Part shown: one piece after another, positions 394-32,060 of the stretch | How positions within the stretch are numbered: position 1 is the first letter of the stretch | How the letters are laid out: each line of letters starts with the position of its first letter | Virus record (IMG/VR): IMGVR_UViG_3300025161_000264 | Coordinates: 1 to 32,060 of that record | Length of the DNA stretch: 32,060 bases | Source of the DNA: a virus | Reading direction: 5' to 3' (one strand) | The notes under the pieces: generated by a model | Databases searched by the model: none | What the model saw: only the letters and a program-made list of their open reading frames with translations | What the model was told of the DNA's origin: nothing | Position numbers and translations under genes: made by a program

Positions 394-409
394 GGTCGCT
401 TCGCTCCCT

Positions 410-500
410 CAGGCTTCAGACTTCAGGCTTCGGGCTTCAGGAGGAGGGATGCAACGGTCCCGCAATCCTGAAGCCTGGAGCCCGAAGCCTGGAGCCTCTC
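410..500. repeat. Palindromic heptad-repeat cassette A
   Basis: The left arm (411-441) is four tandem 7-mers of the type AGGCTTC/AGACTTC/GGGCTTC. The right arm (467-496) is the complementary series CCTGAAG, CCTGGAG, CCCGAAG, CCTGGAG. The two arms can fold into one long imperfect hairpin. The cassette fills the gap between the tape measure stop (504) and the next start (393). It has the same architecture as the cassettes at 2951, 4575, 5449 and 8278, though the unit sequence differs. Confidence 0.85.
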
Positions 501-2946: not shown

Positions 2947-3407
2947 GGTGGACTGTTGGGCTGTTTGACTGTTGGACTGTTGGGGCTCGCGGGTTGGGGC
3001 TTCTCCGAACAGCCCAACAGCCCAACCGCCCAACAGCCATGTTTTCCGTTCTGCCTGATCCGGGCCATCTCGCGGCGGTGACTGAGCAGCAGCATCAGGC
3101 CCATGAGGATCACCTGCCCGACGGGCACGGCGCTGGAATACTCGATACCTTTCCAGCCGCTGGCGTCGATCTGGCCGGTGACGTTGCCTTGGCCGGACTG
3201 TTGACTGGCCTGGGCCGTGGTGTGCGATTCAGGCCTGCCCGGCGTCGGCGCGGCCTGCGCAGCTCGCGCGGGCGCGGGCGGACCCGGCCCTGCCTGTGCG
3301 TCGCACGCAGACAGGCCGGACATCGACTGCCGCGCCGTTGTGGCCGCGCAGCCGGTGATGGCCAGCGCGCAGCACCCCGCGAAGAGAATGTGACGCGCGC
3401 TGGTCAC
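2943..3407 (-). CDS. Lipoprotein with C-terminal membrane segment (u-spanin-like topology)
   Basis: It starts at a GTG at 3407 that overlaps the previous stop (GTGA) and encodes 154 residues. The N-terminus is a lipoprotein signal (ARHILFAGCCALAITGC) with a lipobox ending in cysteine. A proline/alanine/glutamine-rich periplasmic stretch follows. Near the C-terminus is one hydrophobic segment (VGQVILMGLMLLL) followed by basic residues. Outer-membrane lipid anchor plus C-terminal inner-membrane helix is the arrangement of unimolecular spanins such as T1 gp11, which fuse the membranes during lysis. No lysis neighbour supports this in the window, so the function is inferred. The last 30 residues or so are encoded by repeat B, and a palindrome at 3289-3315 lies inside the gene. 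Confidence 0.6.
   Translation of the reverse strand: MTSARHILFAGCCALAITGCAATTARQSMSGLSACDAQAGPGPPAPARAAQAAPTPGRPESHTTAQASQQSGQGNVTGQIDASGWKGIEYSSAVPVGQVILMGLMLLLSHRREMARIRQNGKHGCWAVGLLGCSEKPQPASPNSPTVKQPNSPP
2951..3038. repeat. Palindromic octad-repeat cassette B
   Basis: The left arm (2951-2985) is four tandem octamers of the type GACTGTTG/GGCTGTTT. The right arm (3008-3038) is the complementary CCCAACAG series. The first 36-37 bases are identical to the left arm of cassette E at 8278. Here the cassette lies inside the 3' end of the lipoprotein gene and upstream of the gp10-like start. Confidence 0.85.
3289..3315. repeat. GC-rich imperfect palindrome P1
   Basis: This 27-bp imperfect palindrome lies in frame inside the lipoprotein gene and encodes SACDAQAG. 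Its reverse complement is identical over all 27 bases to the copy at 21741-21767 in the helicase gene, 18 kb away. This marks a dispersed repeat family. Confidence 0.8.
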
Positions 3408-4574: not shown

Positions 4575-5006
4575 GGGCTGTTGGGCTGTTAGACTGTTGG
4601 ACTGTTGGGAGGACCACCATGCGCGACCATACGAAGCTTCAAGCTTTCCAGGCGGCGGACGAGTTGGCGTTGCTCGTCTATCGAACCACGCAGTCCTTTC
4701 CCCGCGAAGAGCAATTCGGATTGACCGCGCAAATGAGACGGGCGGCCGTGTCAGTCGCATCGAACATCGTCGAAGGCTGTGCACGACAAAGTGAGGGTGA
4801 CTACATCCGGTTCCTCGATATGGCGTTCGGCTCGCTGCGCGAGCTGACTTATCAGGCATCACTCGCCCATCGGCTCGGCTATGTGCCGAACGACGCATTC
4901 CAGTCTCTTGACGCTCAATGCACATCGGCCTCAAAGCTCCTCGCCGGACTGATTCGCGCTCTGCGCGAGTGACCAGCATCCCAACAGCCCAACAGTCCAA
5001 CAGCCT
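4575..5006 (+). mobile_element. Octad-repeat cassette C carrying a four-helix-bundle gene
   Basis: The left arm (4575-4606) is exactly four octamers: GGGCTGTT twice, AGACTGTT and GGACTGTT. The right arm (4980-5006) is the complementary CCCAACAG, CCCAACAG, TCCAACAG series. Between them lies one complete plus-strand gene, opposite to all neighbouring phage genes. The unit sits precisely between the tail tube stop (5012) and the G start (4560). Empty versions with the same arms occur at 2951 and 8278. This looks like a mobile cassette; transposition itself is inferred. Confidence 0.65.
4619..4972 (+). CDS. Four-helix-bundle protein (23S rRNA intervening-sequence / Avd-like family)
   Basis: The protein has 117 residues and starts at ATG 4619. 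The ribosome site GGGAGG is formed by the end of the repeat arm. The family signature is clear: LQAFQAADELALLVYRTTQSFP at the start, then LTAQMRRAAVSVASNIVEGC, GDYIRFLDMAFGSLRELTYQ and a final helix. Proteins of this family occur in 23S rRNA intervening sequences and, as Avd, with diversity-generating retroelements. They form basic helical bundles and oligomers that bind nucleic acid. No reverse transcriptase or rRNA is present here. It is the only plus-strand gene in the structural region, and it is enclosed by inverted octad repeats. Its role, possibly in propagating the cassette, is unknown. Confidence 0.85.
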   Translation: MRDHTKLQAFQAADELALLVYRTTQSFPREEQFGLTAQMRRAAVSVASNIVEGCARQSEGDYIRFLDMAFGSLRELTYQASLAHRLGYVPNDAFQSLDAQCTSASKLLAGLIRALRE

Positions 5007-5448: not shown

Positions 5449-5546
5449 CAGGCTGTAGGCCGGAGACTGGAGAACGGAGGTTTCAGTTTGCTCGCGCCGC
5501 GTTCGACTCGCGCGCCTCCAGCCTTCAGCCTCCAGTCTCCGGTCTC
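5449..5546. repeat. Palindromic heptad-repeat cassette D
   Basis: The left arm (5449-5480) consists of heptamers GGCTGTA, GGCCGGA, GACTGGA, GAACGGA. The right arm (5515-5546) is the complementary heptad series CTCCAGC, CTTCAGC, CTCCAGT, CTCCGGT. It fills the gap between the tail tube start and the stop of the upstream gene. Confidence 0.85.
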
Positions 5547-7219: not shown

Positions 7220-7561
7220 TCATCCCTGCGACACCAGCACGCGCACATACGCGGCGTTGTCGTCCGCCGTCTTGATCGCCTTGCCCAGGTACTTGTTCGC
7301 CCCGCCGCCGTCGGACAGGTCGCCCGTCTGGCGCGACGCGTTCCAGTAGACCTTCGTGCCGGCGCGAATCTCCGTTGCGACGCCCGTCGATTTCGGGATG
7401 TCGAAGATGCCGGCGATGGTCAGCGGCCCCGGCGTGTCGGCGCGGATGTCCCGCCGCGCCACGCCGACCAGCTCGCCCTGGACGATGATCTCGCCGGCGG
7501 CCACGTCGTAGGCCGGGATGTGCTCGATCACGCCGCCGCGCTGGACGAACCGCGCCCGCAT
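7220..7561 (-). CDS. DUF2190 capsid decoration-like protein, copy 3
   Basis: The protein has 113 residues. It begins MRARFVQRGGVIEHIPAYDV and continues with AAGEIIVQGELVGVARRDI, then GIFDIPK and KVYWNASRQTG. These are hallmarks of the DUF2190 family, which decorates or stabilises HK97-type capsids. It is the most divergent of three adjacent copies and ends VRVLVSQG. The three genes follow the capsid gene directly, as expected for decoration proteins. Confidence 0.8.
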   Translation of the reverse strand: MRARFVQRGGVIEHIPAYDVAAGEIIVQGELVGVARRDIRADTPGPLTIAGIFDIPKSTGVATEIRAGTKVYWNASRQTGDLSDGGGANKYLGKAIKTADDNAAYVRVLVSQG

Positions 7562-7571
7562 GGGCCGCCTC

Positions 7572-7910
7572 CTACTGCGTCAGCCGCACCCGGACGAACA
7601 TGCTGGTGTCGGGGGCGGTCCGCACCGCCTTGCCGACCAGCTTGTTCGCCCCGGCCCCGTCGCTGGCCGTCCCGACCTTGTTGTTGGCGTCCCAATACAC
7701 CTTCGCCCCGACGGTGATCTGCGTGCCGCTGCCGGTCGCCTTGGGGATGTCGAAGACGCCCGACACCGCCAGCGACCCCTGCGTGTTGGCCCGGATGTTC
7801 CGCCGGGCGATGCCCACCAGGTCGCCCTGCACGACCACCTCGCCAAGGGCGACGTTGACCGTCGGGACGAAATCCACCGCCAGCCCGCGCTGCACAAATC
7901 TTGCCGGCAT
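7572..7910 (-). CDS. DUF2190 capsid decoration-like protein, copy 2
   Basis: The protein has 112 residues and starts MPARFVQRGLAVDFVPTVNV. Shared blocks with both neighbours are GEVVVQGDLVGIARRNI, GVFDIPKATG, GAKVYWDANN and KLVGKAVRTA. It is the middle gene of a tandem triplet downstream of the capsid gene. All three have similar length, so they are complete copies and not fragments. Confidence 0.8.
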   Translation of the reverse strand: MPARFVQRGLAVDFVPTVNVALGEVVVQGDLVGIARRNIRANTQGSLAVSGVFDIPKATGSGTQITVGAKVYWDANNKVGTASDGAGANKLVGKAVRTAPDTSMFVRVRLTQ

Positions 7911-7922
7911 TGCTCGAACCTC

Positions 7923-8258
7923 CTATTGCAACATCCGCACGCGGACGGTCGCATCCGCGTCCGCAGCGGCCTTGATGCACTTGCCGATCAGCTTGTTGCC
8001 CGTCGCCGTGGTCGTGGCCACGTTGTTCGCGTCATCCCAATAGCAGTTGGCCCCGGCGCTGATCGCCGTGCCGCCGCCCGTGGCCTTGGCGAAGTCGAAA
8101 ACGCCGGACACGGCCAGCGCCCCGAGCGTATTGGCCTTGATGTCCATCCTGGCCACGCCGACCAGCTCGCCGATGACGACCACGTCACCGGCAGCCACGT
8201 CCGCCGCCGGTGTGTAGTCAATCGAATTGCCTTCGTGTCGAAAAACCGCCTGTGGCAT
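7923..8258 (-). CDS. DUF2190 capsid decoration-like protein, copy 1
   Basis: The protein has 111 residues from the ATG at 8258, with ribosome site GGAGG 7 bases upstream. It starts MPQAVFRHEGNSIDYTPAAD and contains GDVVVIGELVGVARMDI, GVFDFAKATGGG and CYWDDANNVATT. The open frame extends upstream, but that part is cassette E and is excluded. It is the capsid-proximal member of the triplet. Confidence 0.8.
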   Translation of the reverse strand: MPQAVFRHEGNSIDYTPAADVAAGDVVVIGELVGVARMDIKANTLGALAVSGVFDFAKATGGGTAISAGANCYWDDANNVATTTATGNKLIGKCIKAAADADATVRVRMLQ

Positions 8259-8277: not shown

Positions 8278-8359
8278 GACTGTTGGGCTGTTTGACTGTT
8301 GGACTGTTGGGGCCACGCCTTCGCGCCAAACAGCCCAACGGCCCAACAGTCCAGCAGCC
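8278..8359. repeat. Palindromic octad-repeat cassette E
   Basis: The left arm (8278-8312) has the same four octamers and same order as cassette B, identical over about 36 bases. The right arm (8327-8359) is the complementary CCCAACAG/CCAGCAG series. It fills the gap between the capsid stop (8365) and the first DUF2190 start (8258). Confidence 0.85.
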
Positions 8360-19791: not shown

Positions 19792-21696
19792 TCACGTTTC
19801 GCTCTCCGGTGCGCTTGTCGGAACGGATGCGAAGCCGACCGGGCAACTCGGGTTCTTCGGCCGCCAGCGGAATACCAGCCCCTTCGCCTCGGCCTGTTGC
19901 AGCAGCTTTTCCGCCTTCCAGCCCGACAGCCCCGCAACACTAGCCGCCGCGACGATCTGCGCCCGGGTGCGTGGTTCGTCGGTGACGAAGCTGTGTGCGA
20001 ACGTCGCAGCGTCCCATTCAACCACAGGCTCGTCCGGTTGATCGTCGTCGAGGTTCGCGGCCGGGCGTTTCAGACGTCGCGGTTTTTCCACGCGCAGCGC
20101 CGTGGGATCGAGTTCCGGCGCGACGCGCCAGACGGGAAACTCCCACCGCAGCGCCATCGGCCCGATCGGCGGCCACGACCGCAGCGCCGCCTCCAGCACG
20201 ACTGCCTTCGGCGCTTCGTGCGGTCGCAGGATGACGTGCGTGTCGGCGGCCCGGCTCTGGCTCCCAGCCCCTGCTCCGACGTCCGTCACCGATTTGGCCG
20301 ACTGATTGCCCTTGGTCGTGTGGTGAATGATGGCAAAACAGCAGCCCAGGCGGTCGGCAAGGGCGTCGATGAGGTTGTAGATGCCGGCCATCGTCCCGTT
20401 GTCGTTCTCATCCATGCCGCGGGGCATGAAGCGATACGAGGCGTCCAGGATGATCAGGGCGTAGCGGCCGGCCTCCAGCGACTCGAAGTACGGCCGCATG
20501 GCGAAGATGTCGCACAGGCGGCCGCGCAGGCTCTCGACCGCGACGCGTTCGCGGAGAACGTCCAGCCCGATGCCCAGGGCCTCCGCGACCTGCGGGATGC
20601 GATGGGCGATGGTCTCGCGGTGCAGCTCGTTGTCGATGATCAGAACGTTGCCCGCGACGGTCTCGAAGGTGTCGAGCCAGGGGCGGCCGCTGGCCACGGC
20701 CATCGCCAAGGCCAGCACCAGCCAGCTCTTGCCCGTTTTCGGCGGGGCGATCACGTTCATGGTTTCGCCGCGACGCAGCAGGCCGACGATCACCGCCGCC
20801 CGCATCTGGAGGCACTCCTGCATGAGCTCGCCAAGCTTCTGCGGCCGTGCCACGGGCGCACCGGCGAAATCCTGCCGGTAATGGTCCTCGACCAGAGCGA
20901 CGGACACGGCGTCGGGCGCATAGCGGGCGATGCTGGCGGCGATGCGCTCGACCTCGCGATGGTCCAGCGGGGGATGACAACGCTCCACGTTGACCCGCAA
21001 CAGTGCGGCGAAGATCTCCGTCCGTGACATGCCCACCCGCCGCATCGCCCCGGCCAGGCGGGCCAGCGTGTCGTTGCGCTGGCCTTGGGGGATCGCGTTG
21101 GCGTCCGCGCCGTCGCGCACCGTCACCGCGCCGTTCGCGGTGGGCACGGCGTCAAGCAACTCGACGAGCCAGGCGGGCGGTTCGGGGAGCTTGTCGGGCG
21201 GGACGCCGAGGCCCTGGTCCTCCAGCCAGCGGTAGCATTTCCCCGCCACGACCGATGGCCCGACCAGGATGTAGCCGCCGTCGGCGCGGGTATCGACGTT
21301 CGGAGCGATCTGCCCGGCGGTGTTACGCCATGCGCGGCCCTTCGGCTGGCGGAACAGGTGCTGCCGTCCGCCTCGCGGCGTCAGCGACGTGGGCGCGCAG
21401 GCCAGGCCCTGCGATTTGTCCTGATCATCGGCGAGCCAGGAATTGTCCGCGCCGTCGATGTCGACTACGAGCAGGCCGTCGGTGCGGATGGCGACGTTGG
21501 CGCTGGGATGCTCCGACCACCACCGTTCGATCTGTTCCTGGTCGGTCGTCGCGTCGAGCAGGCCATGCGCGGTCAGGGGGCACTTGCGCCCGGGGGCGCA
21601 GGGGAAGACCGCGTAGCCCAGGTCGGCGTACCACAGCGCGGCGTGGAGCATCCTGTCTGCGTGCGGCCCACAGGCAGACGTGTTTTCGGAATCCAT
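19792..21696 (-). CDS. Replication protein: primase-polymerase plus RepA-like helicase
   Basis: The protein has 634 residues. Residues 18-185 are a bifunctional primase-polymerase domain (LGYAVFPCAPGRKCPLTAHG, catalytic DID at 79-81, GGYILVGPS). After a linker helical domain, a RecA-type ATPase has Walker A at 316-324 (IAPPKTGKS) and Walker B near 415 (ALIILDAS), with an IIHHTTKG motif. This is the usual phage/plasmid replication fusion that primes and unwinds at the origin. Residues 7-15 are encoded by palindrome P2. It is the last gene of the early operon, 14 bases after the helicase. Confidence 0.9.
   Translation of the reverse strand: MDSENTSACGPHADRMLHAALWYADLGYAVFPCAPGRKCPLTAHGLLDATTDQEQIERWWSEHPSANVAIRTDGLLVVDIDGADNSWLADDQDKSQGLACAPTSLTPRGGRQHLFRQPKGRAWRNTAGQIAPNVDTRADGGYILVGPSVVAGKCYRWLEDQGLGVPPDKLPEPPAWLVELLDAVPTANGAVTVRDGADANAIPQGQRNDTLARLAGAMRRVGMSRTEIFAALLRVNVERCHPPLDHREVERIAASIARYAPDAVSVALVEDHYRQDFAGAPVARPQKLGELMQECLQMRAAVIVGLLRRGETMNVIAPPKTGKSWLVLALAMAVASGRPWLDTFETVAGNVLIIDNELHRETIAHRIPQVAEALGIGLDVLRERVAVESLRGRLCDIFAMRPYFESLEAGRYALIILDASYRFMPRGMDENDNGTMAGIYNLIDALADRLGCCFAIIHHTTKGNQSAKSVTDVGAGAGSQSRAADTHVILRPHEAPKAVVLEAALRSWPPIGPMALRWEFPVWRVAPELDPTALRVEKPRRLKRPAANLDDDQPDEPVVEWDAATFAHSFVTDEPRTRAQIVAAASVAGLSGWKAEKLLQQAEAKGLVFRWRPKNPSCPVGFASVPTSAPESET
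21652..21680. repeat. GC palindrome P2 at the primase N-terminus
   Basis: CCTGTCTGCGTGCGG followed by a complementary half, in frame within the primase gene (encoding SACGPHADR). It differs from P1/P3 at a few positions. Confidence 0.75.
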
Positions 21697-21710: not shown

Positions 21711-23414
21711 TCAGAACGGAACGGAGTCATCCTTTGCCGACCTGTCTGCGTGCGACGCACAGGCAGGCACGTACTCGGGCAACTGCTCCTCCGAATCGAG
21801 CCGCGGCGGCTTTTCGCCCAGGCGATGCCCCACCACGCGGTCGAACTTCTCGCCGGCCTTGCGCTCGACGGTGATCGCCAGCGTCGGGGCCAGCGCGCCG
21901 GCCTCCGCCAGTTCGACGCCCTCGTCGGCCGACGCCGGCACCGGCTCGTTCGACCGCCGCGACCACCACTGCACGGCCTTCTGGCGCGGAAAGCCCTCGT
22001 GCTCGAAGCAGATCCACTCGCTGACGTACTCGTTGAATGCGATTCGATAGTCCACGCGCATGGTCCGCGGCGCATCGGGCGGAGCGCCGCGCTTCACATG
22101 CACGGCGTAAAAGACATCCGTGACCTCGTGCTCGGTGCGAGCGGCCTGATCGGACAGAATGCCCTCGCTGCTGGCGGTCGCCTCGTGCTTTTTCCGCTCC
22201 GGCGGCGGGAATTCGTGACCGCACTCAGGACAATTGGCGTACCCAGCGGCGATGACGGCGTGGCACTGTGGGCATTCCTTGGCCGGCACCTCGCCGTTGC
22301 CGTCCGACGCGGCGTCCGCGATGCGGATCGCGTCCACGGGCCCGTGCCGCAGAACGTTGCCGCCGAAGTCGAGGACGAGGCAGTCGGCCTTGCCGGGGTG
22401 AAGGCGGAAGCCGCGACCGACCATCTGGTAATAGAGCCCTGGCGACAGCGTCGGCCGCACCAGCGCCACGCAGTCGATGTTCGGGGCGTCGAAGCCGGTG
22501 GTCAGGACGTTGACGTTGCACAGGTACTTCAGCGTCCCTTCGCGGAAGCACTTCAGCAGGTTGTCCCGCTCGAACGGCAGCGTTTCGCCGCAGACGAATC
22601 CGCATTCGACCTTGTGGCGCTCGGCGAACACGCGGCAGATGTGCTGGCCGTGCCGCACTCCTGACGCGAAGATCAGGACCGACCTGCGTTCCTGCGTGTG
22701 CTCGATAATCTCGCGACAGGCCGACAGGACGAGGTTGTCATCGTCCATGAGGTCCTCGACCTCGCCGGCGATATATTCGCCTCCGCGGACGTGCAACTTC
22801 TCGGTGTCGGGCTTGAGCGCGCCAGCCTTGGTGCGAAGCGGGCAGAGATAGCCCTGCACGATCAGCTCGCGGACGCCGATCTCGAAGCACACGGCGTTGA
22901 GGATGTTCTCCGGCGCGCAGATCGTGCCGGACTTCATGCGGAACGGCGTGGCCGTCATGCCGATCACCCGCAGATGCGAATTGATCTTTCGGGCGTCCGT
23001 CAGGAACGTGCGGTACATCCCCTCGCCATCCGGCGGTATAAGGTGCGCCTCGTCGACGATGACGAGGTCCACCGGCCCGACGTCGCAGGCCTTCTCGTAG
23101 ATGGACTGGATGCCGGCGATGGTGACGGCGTAGCCCAGGTCGCGGCGCTTCAGGCCCGCCGAGTAAATGCCGACCGGCAGGTCCGGGGCGACCAGGTGCA
23201 ACTTCTCGGCGGCCTGTTCGAGCAGCTCGCGGACGTGCGCGAGGATCAGCACGCGGCCTTGCCAGAGCTGGACGGCGTCACGGCAGATCGTCGCCATCAC
23301 CGGCGTCTTGCCGCCGGCGGTCGGGATGACCACGCACGGGTTGTCATCCCGCTCGCGCAGGTGTCGATAGACGGCCTGCACGGCCTCAAGCTGGTAGGGA
23401 CGCAGTTGCATCAT
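21711..23414 (-). CDS. SF2 DEAD/DEAH-box helicase
   Basis: The protein has 567 residues. Motif Q-like RPYQLEAVQAV opens the protein. Walker A is at 30-37 (IPTAGGKT), DEAH at 121-124, and GMTATPFR serves as motif III. The second RecA-like domain has VGRGFRLHPGK (motif VI). A four-cysteine zinc ribbon follows (CPQCHAVIAAGYANCPECGH). It probably unwinds DNA during phage replication or recombination, and resembles phage helicases related to UvsW/RecG-like restriction-type ATPases. The start overlaps the upstream ParB-like stop as ATGA. Palindrome P3 encodes ACASHADR close to the C-terminus. Confidence 0.9.
   Translation of the reverse strand: MMQLRPYQLEAVQAVYRHLRERDDNPCVVIPTAGGKTPVMATICRDAVQLWQGRVLILAHVRELLEQAAEKLHLVAPDLPVGIYSAGLKRRDLGYAVTIAGIQSIYEKACDVGPVDLVIVDEAHLIPPDGEGMYRTFLTDARKINSHLRVIGMTATPFRMKSGTICAPENILNAVCFEIGVRELIVQGYLCPLRTKAGALKPDTEKLHVRGGEYIAGEVEDLMDDDNLVLSACREIIEHTQERRSVLIFASGVRHGQHICRVFAERHKVECGFVCGETLPFERDNLLKCFREGTLKYLCNVNVLTTGFDAPNIDCVALVRPTLSPGLYYQMVGRGFRLHPGKADCLVLDFGGNVLRHGPVDAIRIADAASDGNGEVPAKECPQCHAVIAAGYANCPECGHEFPPPERKKHEATASSEGILSDQAARTEHEVTDVFYAVHVKRGAPPDAPRTMRVDYRIAFNEYVSEWICFEHEGFPRQKAVQWWSRRSNEPVPASADEGVELAEAGALAPTLAITVERKAGEKFDRVVGHRLGEKPPRLDSEEQLPEYVPACASHADRSAKDDSVPF
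21741..21767. repeat. GC palindrome P3 at the helicase C-terminus
   Basis: This is identical over 27 bases to the reverse complement of P1 at 3289-3315. It is in frame in the helicase gene and only 60 bases from copy P2. Confidence 0.8.
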
Positions 23415-29654: not shown

Positions 29655-29674
29655 TCAGCGTATCTTACGTCAAA

Positions 29675-29722
29675 AGCGGGCGATGGGATTCGAACCCACG
29701 ACGTCCAGCTTGGGAAGCTGGC
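29675..29722 (-). repeat. att copy: 48-bp 3' fragment of tRNA-Gly(CCC)
   Basis: It is identical over 48 bases to 32000-32047, which belongs to an intact tRNA. It includes acceptor 3' strand, T arm, variable region and the anticodon loop TTCCCAA, but the 5' half is absent. It is therefore a duplicated attachment core between the prophage and the right-hand mini-element, not a functional tRNA. Confidence 0.92.

Positions 29723-30341: not shown

Positions 30342-32060
<1,719 letters not shown>

What the first reader, a model, noticed from the sequence alone, without database searches (positions are those of the whole stretch)
4575..5006. An octad-repeat cassette that contains a complete four-helix-bundle gene
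The gene (4619-4972) belongs to the IVS/Avd-like bundle family. It is enclosed exactly by inverted octad arms, runs against the surrounding operon, and its ribosome site is made by the end of the left arm. Empty cassettes with the same arm sequences exist at 2951 and 8278. This suggests an autonomous copy (with gene) and non-autonomous copies (without) of an undescribed mobile unit. The bundle protein could bind or process the hairpins. Members of the same protein family sit inside 23S rRNA intervening sequences, which are also hairpin-ended insertions.
Basis: partly seen in the sequence, partly recalled or inferred. Interest (0 to 1): 0.82.

Follow-up and report, generated by a model that had tools for sequence, protein, structure and literature searches.

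The report
Repeat-armed mobile gene cassette family
A small helical-protein gene of unknown function turns out to sit, in viruses, plasmids and chromosomes of many bacterial phyla, inside a short mobile DNA unit whose two ends are mirror-image arrays of 7- or 8-letter repeats, which suggests a role for a very common orphan protein family and an origin for repeats long known but unexplained.

Summary
The gene (PF05635, E 1.5e-34) lies between inverted octad arrays; two empty copies share its arms. All 12 viral and most of 80 chromosomal homologues have inverted 7/8-mer arrays too: 78 of 91 loci exceed the 99th percentile of same-locus controls. The unit differs from copy to copy, even among paralogues of one genome, but tracks the protein sequence (Mantel rho 0.52, 0 of 500 permutations). 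The units move: there are occupied and empty sites in near-identical Nostoc plasmids, a 185-bp gene-less copy with the same unit inside one gene copy, and, in one sub-lineage with defined ends, target duplications of exactly 8 bp (7 of 28 with at most one mismatch, 0.10 expected; other lengths at background). Two gene-bearing elements (430-456 bp) are bounded by such duplications and carry only the bundle gene. Arm mismatches show no G-U bias, so RNA folding on the gene strand is not what keeps the arms paired. Best reading: a mobile cassette whose bundle protein recognises its own repeat arms and is moved, with gene-less copies, by an enzyme acting in trans. That enzyme is not identified, and the protein's role in movement is inferred.

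The parts
4575..4610 (+). left arm: tandem octads (GGCTGTTG / GACTGTTG / AGACTGTT variants), inverted relative to the right arm
4607..4613 (+). Shine-Dalgarno GGGAGGA, beginning in the last bases of the left arm
   Evidence: sequence read directly
4619..4972 (+). four-helix-bundle gene, 117 aa, PF05635 / TIGR02436
   Evidence: model pLDDT 94.8; best PDB matches 2GSC and 2RLD, then DGR Avd
4979..5005 (+). right arm: inverted octads
2949..3039 (.). gene-less octad cassette (arms 2949-2985 and 3003-3039), left arm identical to that at 8278
8278..8359 (.). gene-less octad cassette; the 88%-identical phage L441 has an unrelated heptad cassette at this junction
407..497 (.). gene-less heptad cassette, unit CAGGCTT
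5450..5546 (.). gene-less heptad cassette (unit about GGAGACT) with weaker arms, absent from this junction in the relatives read
   Evidence: BLAST match to the heptad cassette of L441

Best explanation
The cassette is one insertion of a very widespread family of small mobile elements. Each consists of a four-helix-bundle gene tightly enclosed by inverted arrays of a short unit (7 or 8 bp) that is particular to that protein lineage. The bundle protein, by its kinship a pentameric ring like XCC0516 and DGR Avd, is proposed to recognise the repeat arms of its own lineage at DNA level. It would mark both its own copy and gene-less hairpin copies for mobilisation by a nucleic-acid enzyme supplied in trans, which in the sub-lineage with defined ends makes a staggered cut of 8 bp. 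Shown here: architecture, spread, co-variation of arms and protein, mobility, the 8-bp duplication in one sub-lineage, gene-less derivatives, and purifying selection on the protein. Inferred: binding of the arms by the protein, its role in movement, and the trans enzyme.
For: Flanks: all 12 viral homologues show arrays; 78 of 91 loci exceed controls; 15 of 30 Bacteroidota genomes sampled across the phylum and 20 of 30 top hits in 20 genomes exceed controls. Within genomes G013 and G005 almost every paralogue has its own unit. Arm similarity follows protein similarity: rho 0.52, 0 of 500 permutations. The G-rich strand reads inward in 103 of 108. Mobility: the junction is empty in relatives of the phage; sites are occupied in some and empty in other cyanobacterial plasmids, at three of four sites 91-94% identical in BLAST and 85% at the fourth; a gene-less copy of the same unit sits inside a bundle gene, with 120 places in 45 plasmid records. 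Target duplication of exactly 8 bp in 28 elements with termini GTAACTRCTCAGGT; the gene-bearing L092 and L080 carry duplications around 456 and 430 bp. Gene-less copies with the same unit: Adhaeretor, 1 gene-bearing and 3 empty, reversed-pattern control 0; phages, 48 empty and 3 gene-bearing. Purifying selection: dN/dS 0.03-0.15.
Against: No binding or movement experiment. No target duplication excess over the 110 cassettes at large, and none seen for the octad elements of the window. Nostocales gene-less copies sit next to GATAA without a clear duplication, so lineages may differ in chemistry. Co-variation of arms and protein could be linked inheritance rather than recognition. The protein has no catalytic signature and no trans enzyme was found: IS66 was seen in one of six genomes, without matching ends. 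About half of the Bacteroidota sample did not pass the strict test.
Confidence: 0.6

Rival explanations
1. The bundle gene is only a passenger, as in mobile insertion cassettes. An ordinary insertion-sequence transposase of the host moves the element by its ends, and the bundle protein does something else, such as repression of its own promoter or a benefit to the host.
For: An exact 8-bp duplication is what DDE transposases leave; elements bounded by duplications hold no transposase; termini outside the repeat arms exist in that sub-lineage.
Against: The repeat unit follows the protein lineage across phyla and differs between paralogues of one genome, which a passenger of varied IS ends would not predict; no IS with the same ends was found in the six genomes tried for IS66.
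Confidence: 0.25
2. The hairpin acts as RNA, as in 23S rRNA intervening sequences: the transcript folds through the arms, is cut by RNase III, and the protein binds the RNA.
For: Same protein family and same plan as IVS elements (PMC4990558); Avd works in an RNA-protein complex (8UB7).
Against: Arm mismatches are G-T 160 against A-C 148, no bias to wobble pairs on the gene strand; cassettes lie between genes and often against the operon; a fixed 8-bp duplication speaks for DNA insertion.
Confidence: 0.07
3. A retroelement: the transcript is copied by a reverse transcriptase in trans, with the Avd-like protein as adaptor, and inserted.
For: Fold similarity to Avd of the DGR reverse transcriptase complex.
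Against: Fixed 8-bp duplications are not typical of target-primed insertion; no sense-strand RNA bias in the arms; no reverse transcriptase inside the elements.
Confidence: 0.06
4. The arrays are ordinary intergenic tandem repeats made by slippage, next to the gene by accident.
For: Heptad repeats occur without the gene in several bacteria (PMC4692102, PMC4679880).
Against: Controls from the same loci, co-variation with the protein, occupied and empty sites.
Confidence: 0.01

Closest known systems
23S rRNA intervening sequences (IVS) with an S23p ORF, e.g. Coxiella burnetii (PMC4990558)
   Same: Same protein family (PF05635); a small ORF enclosed by inverted terminal repeats; about 430 bp; suspected horizontal movement.
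   Different: The elements here lie between protein genes, next to tRNAs or in operons, not in rRNA; arms are tandem 7/8-mer arrays; mobility is shown by empty sites and 8-bp duplications; no sign of RNA-level folding.
MITEs and mobile insertion cassettes (from memory)
   Same: Short, inverted ends, target duplications, gene-less high-copy derivatives, no transposase inside.
   Different: The ends are made of a tandem unit that co-diverges with the encoded protein; no parent IS identified.
Heptameric repeats of Xanthomonas (GGGAATC, about 70 convergent pairs) and Nostoc (PMC4692102); TAACTGA repeats of Beggiatoaceae (PMC4679880)
   Same: Heptad arrays, often in convergent G-rich-inward pairs in Xanthomonas; the solved family member 2GSC (XCC0516) is from Xanthomonas.
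   Different: The passages read do not link them to a bundle gene. The Nostocales link is shown here on plasmids; the Xanthomonas link was not tested.
DGR accessory protein Avd
   Same: Four-helix bundle fold, TM 0.78-0.80.
   Different: Below the curated cut-off for Avd; no reverse transcriptase, template or variable repeat in the cassette.
REP elements with RAYT (from memory)
   Same: A protein and many gene-less palindromic repeats recognised in trans.
   Different: RAYT is an HUH nuclease; this protein has no such motif; units are 7/8-mer tandem arrays.

Membership tests
PF05635 / S23p four-helix-bundle proteins | profile match above cut-off and fold | tested here: met
   118.9 bits against 33.8; 2GSC TM 0.90
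DGR Avd | profile match above cut-off | tested here: not met
   28.4 bits against 80; PF22296 23.8 against 40
23S rRNA IVS | location inside a 23S rRNA helix | tested here: not met
   lies between phage genes; Rfam finds no rRNA in the window
23S rRNA IVS | ORF enclosed by complementary ends | tested here: met
transposable element (MITE / mobile insertion cassette type) | terminal inverted repeats | tested here: met
transposable element (MITE / mobile insertion cassette type) | target-site duplication | tested here: met
   8 bp in the GTAACT sub-lineage; not seen in the window's octad elements or over all cassettes
transposable element (MITE / mobile insertion cassette type) | occupied and empty sites in relatives | tested here: met
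mobile insertion cassette | ends shared with a complete IS in the same genome | tested here: inconclusive
   only IS66 tried, in six incomplete genomes
REP/RAYT | HUH nuclease encoded | tested here: not met
   the only ORF is the bundle protein

The most novel reading that the evidence does not exclude
The bundle family is the core of a new kind of mobility system: a non-catalytic, repeat-reading protein ring whose specificity diverges together with the 7/8-mer unit of its arms, so that each lineage spreads its own gene-bearing and gene-less hairpins. Much of the heptad-repeat content of bacterial genomes (cyanobacterial, Xanthomonas, planctomycete) would then be its offspring.
Probability: 0.4. 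Interest if true: 0.93.

Novelty: new variant of a known kind. Interest (0 to 1): 0.84.

Why it matters
PF05635 proteins are very common (87 of 118 Bacteroidota genomes sampled, up to 18 copies in a genome) and have no known function. Placing them inside a mobile unit gives the family a testable function, explains why they turn up inside CRISPR-Cas and other operons, offers an origin for orphan heptad repeats, and provides a natural series of protein and repeat-unit pairs for studying how a helical bundle reads a short repeat.

Tried and rejected
RNA-level function: tested by G-T against A-C mismatches, no bias. A general target-duplication search anchored on arm ends gave nothing; it only worked once true termini were known. 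IS66 as trans enzyme (8-bp duplications and GTAA ends, from memory): found in one of six genomes, no matching ends. The two homologous Calothrix plasmids as a recent-transposition pair: same site in both, uninformative. GenBank phage records: no homologue. An exact octad pattern in viral contigs: nothing; a looser one worked. The first attempt to test the junction at 2946 failed because the query protein came out empty. Literature: in the held library no paper was found that links PF05635 genes to tandem-repeat arms; subscription journals and preprints were not searchable. The Xanthomonas prediction (XCC0516 flanked by GGGAATC arrays) could not be tested for want of the genome.

Full report
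What is there. The window is one IMG/VR virus record of 32,060 bases; its gene order and relatives mark it as a phage or prophage. A 117-codon gene (4619-4972, plus strand) runs against the minus-strand phage genes and is enclosed by tandem octads: 4575-4610 on the left, 4979-5005 on the right, complementary over 27 nt at 93%. The protein belongs to PF05635 / TIGR02436. Its predicted structure (pLDDT 94.8) matches XCC0516 of Xanthomonas (2GSC, TM about 0.9, 48% identity) and BT_0352 of Bacteroides (2RLD), and more distantly Avd of diversity-generating retroelements. Two gene-less octad hairpins, at 2949-3039 and 8278-8359, share its arms. A heptad hairpin with another unit is at 407-497, and a weaker one at about 5450-5546.

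The arms are a property of the family. Twelve viral homologues (41-77% identity) all have inverted 7/8-mer arrays. Of 80 chromosomal homologues from more than ten phyla plus the viral ones, 91 had enough flank: 78 exceed the 99th percentile of random flank pairs from the same loci, while left and right flanks taken from different loci do so in 16%. Periodicity is enriched at lags 7, 8 and 14 only, and the best arm period is 7 in 75 and 8 in 30 of 110 cassettes. In a sample across Bacteroidota 87 of 118 genomes carry the family; the best copy per genome passes the strict arm test in 15 of 30 against 1% expected, and by eye several of the others also show arrays.

The unit differs between copies and goes with the protein. 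In genomes G013 and G005 some twenty paralogues carry different units such as GGTGAAT, CCAGTAT, GGCACAGA, GGTCGAG, GAAGTGC and TTAGGGA. Across 110 cassettes arm similarity rises with protein similarity (rho 0.52, 0 of 500 permutations as high), and pairs above 0.8 in protein similarity share arms in 71% of cases against 0-1% for distant pairs. The G-rich strand reads inward in 103 of 108 cassettes. The protein evolves under strong purifying selection (dN/dS 0.03-0.15). Co-variation shows that arms and gene travel as one unit; that the protein recognises the unit is an inference from it.

The units move. In about 80 relatives of the phage (gene A 78-83% identical at protein level) the junction that holds the cassette here is 9 to 102 bp long, against 451 bp in the window. 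A phage 88% identical over several kilobases (L441) has a heptad cassette with another unit at the junction where the window has its gene-less octad cassette, so the two were gained independently. In cyanobacterial plasmids the bundle genes have heptad arms and sit in a Cmr operon, a type I-D cas operon and a ribonucleotide reductase operon. Aligned plasmids show occupied and empty sites at four junctions. BLAST identity between occupied and empty plasmids is about 91-94% in the Nostoc operon that holds two of these sites, about 91% at the Calothrix site and 85% at the ribonucleotide reductase site. In Nostoc N6 the gene copy itself is split by a 185-bp gene-less element with the same heptad unit, of which 120 places occur in 45 plasmid records.

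Exact target duplications. In Desulfobacterota, KSB1, Ignavibacteria and other MAGs a sub-lineage with unit AGGCTGT has conserved termini GTAACTRCTCAGGTNGATAG, dispersed in up to 34 copies per genome, with no match to the reversed control pattern. Twenty-eight elements with both termini were tested: the flanks repeat over exactly 8 bp (4 exact, 7 with at most one mismatch, 0.10 expected; identity 0.56 against 0.30), while lengths 3-7 and 9-12 are at background. Two gene-bearing elements, L092 (456 bp, GTTATATT) and L080 (430 bp, AAACGATA), show such duplications, found by inspection and located (flanks); the bundle gene is their only long ORF, interrupted by one stop codon in L080. This was not seen in the octad elements of the window, nor in all cassettes pooled, and the Nostocales gene-less copies lie next to GATAA without a clear duplication. 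So the insertion chemistry is known for one sub-lineage only.

Gene-less copies outnumber gene-bearing ones. In the complete genome of Adhaeretor mobilis the heptad unit of its gene-bearing cassette recurs in three gene-less hairpins. In phage contigs picked by octad or heptad pattern there are 48 gene-less and 3 gene-bearing cassettes; that sample was chosen by unit, so the ratio is not a census.

How it probably works. The arms pair at DNA level: mismatches in 103 arm pairs are G-T 160 and A-C 148, so no selection for wobble pairs on the gene strand is visible. The element holds no known transposase, so an enzyme acts in trans, and a fixed 8-bp stagger is what DDE transposases leave. The bundle protein is the element's only product, is conserved by selection and co-diverges with the arms, so I take it to be a unit-specific arm-binding factor that brings the enzyme to its own and to gene-less copies. 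The alternative that it is a passenger is the strongest rival. The trans enzyme was not found; IS66 was tried and did not fit.

What is known. The nearest described relatives are the intervening sequences of 23S rRNA, which carry the same protein in a hairpin-ended insertion and have been suspected to be mobile (PMC4990558), and, for the repeats, the heptads of Xanthomonas and Nostoc (PMC4692102) and of Beggiatoaceae (PMC4679880). PF05635 was noted as Avd-like by others (PMC10053308). No paper in the held library was found to connect the protein with the repeats.

Noticed in passing
window 29672-29722 and 31997-32047: A 51-bp direct repeat (98%) ending like a tRNA; Rfam calls a tRNA at 32000-32060. 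It brackets an integrase gene (30342-32060) and may be an attachment-site pair.
   Followed up: partly
window 3289-3319, 21652-21689, 21737-21778: Three copies of a palindromic repeat CTGTCTGCGTGCG(A)CGCACAGGCAG, unrelated to the octads; looks REP-like.
   Followed up: no
L269 1417-1606 (Nostoc N6 plasmid pNPM1): A bundle gene split by a 185-bp gene-less element with the same heptad unit; right ends of such copies lie next to GATAA, which is already present at the empty site.
   Followed up: partly
L264 and L260: Bundle cassettes inside a type III-B Cmr operon and a type I-D cas operon of cyanobacterial plasmids; such insertions may be why the family has been listed near CRISPR genes.
   Followed up: no
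L044, L070, L072, L075, L081, L030, L037: In several Pirellulaceae the cassettes appear to lie beside tRNA-like sequences, at the same kind of site in different species; some are repeated within 20 kb in one genome (CA13).
   Followed up: no
L270 and L273, junction before the gene at 883 / 930: Two plasmids share the outer element and the left arm of a nested gene-less element but differ in its core, as if cores were exchanged between arms.
   Followed up: no
window 7220-8255: Three tandem paralogous small phage genes (65-71% identical DNA); the phage L441 has fewer copies and a cassette at the corresponding junction.
   Followed up: no
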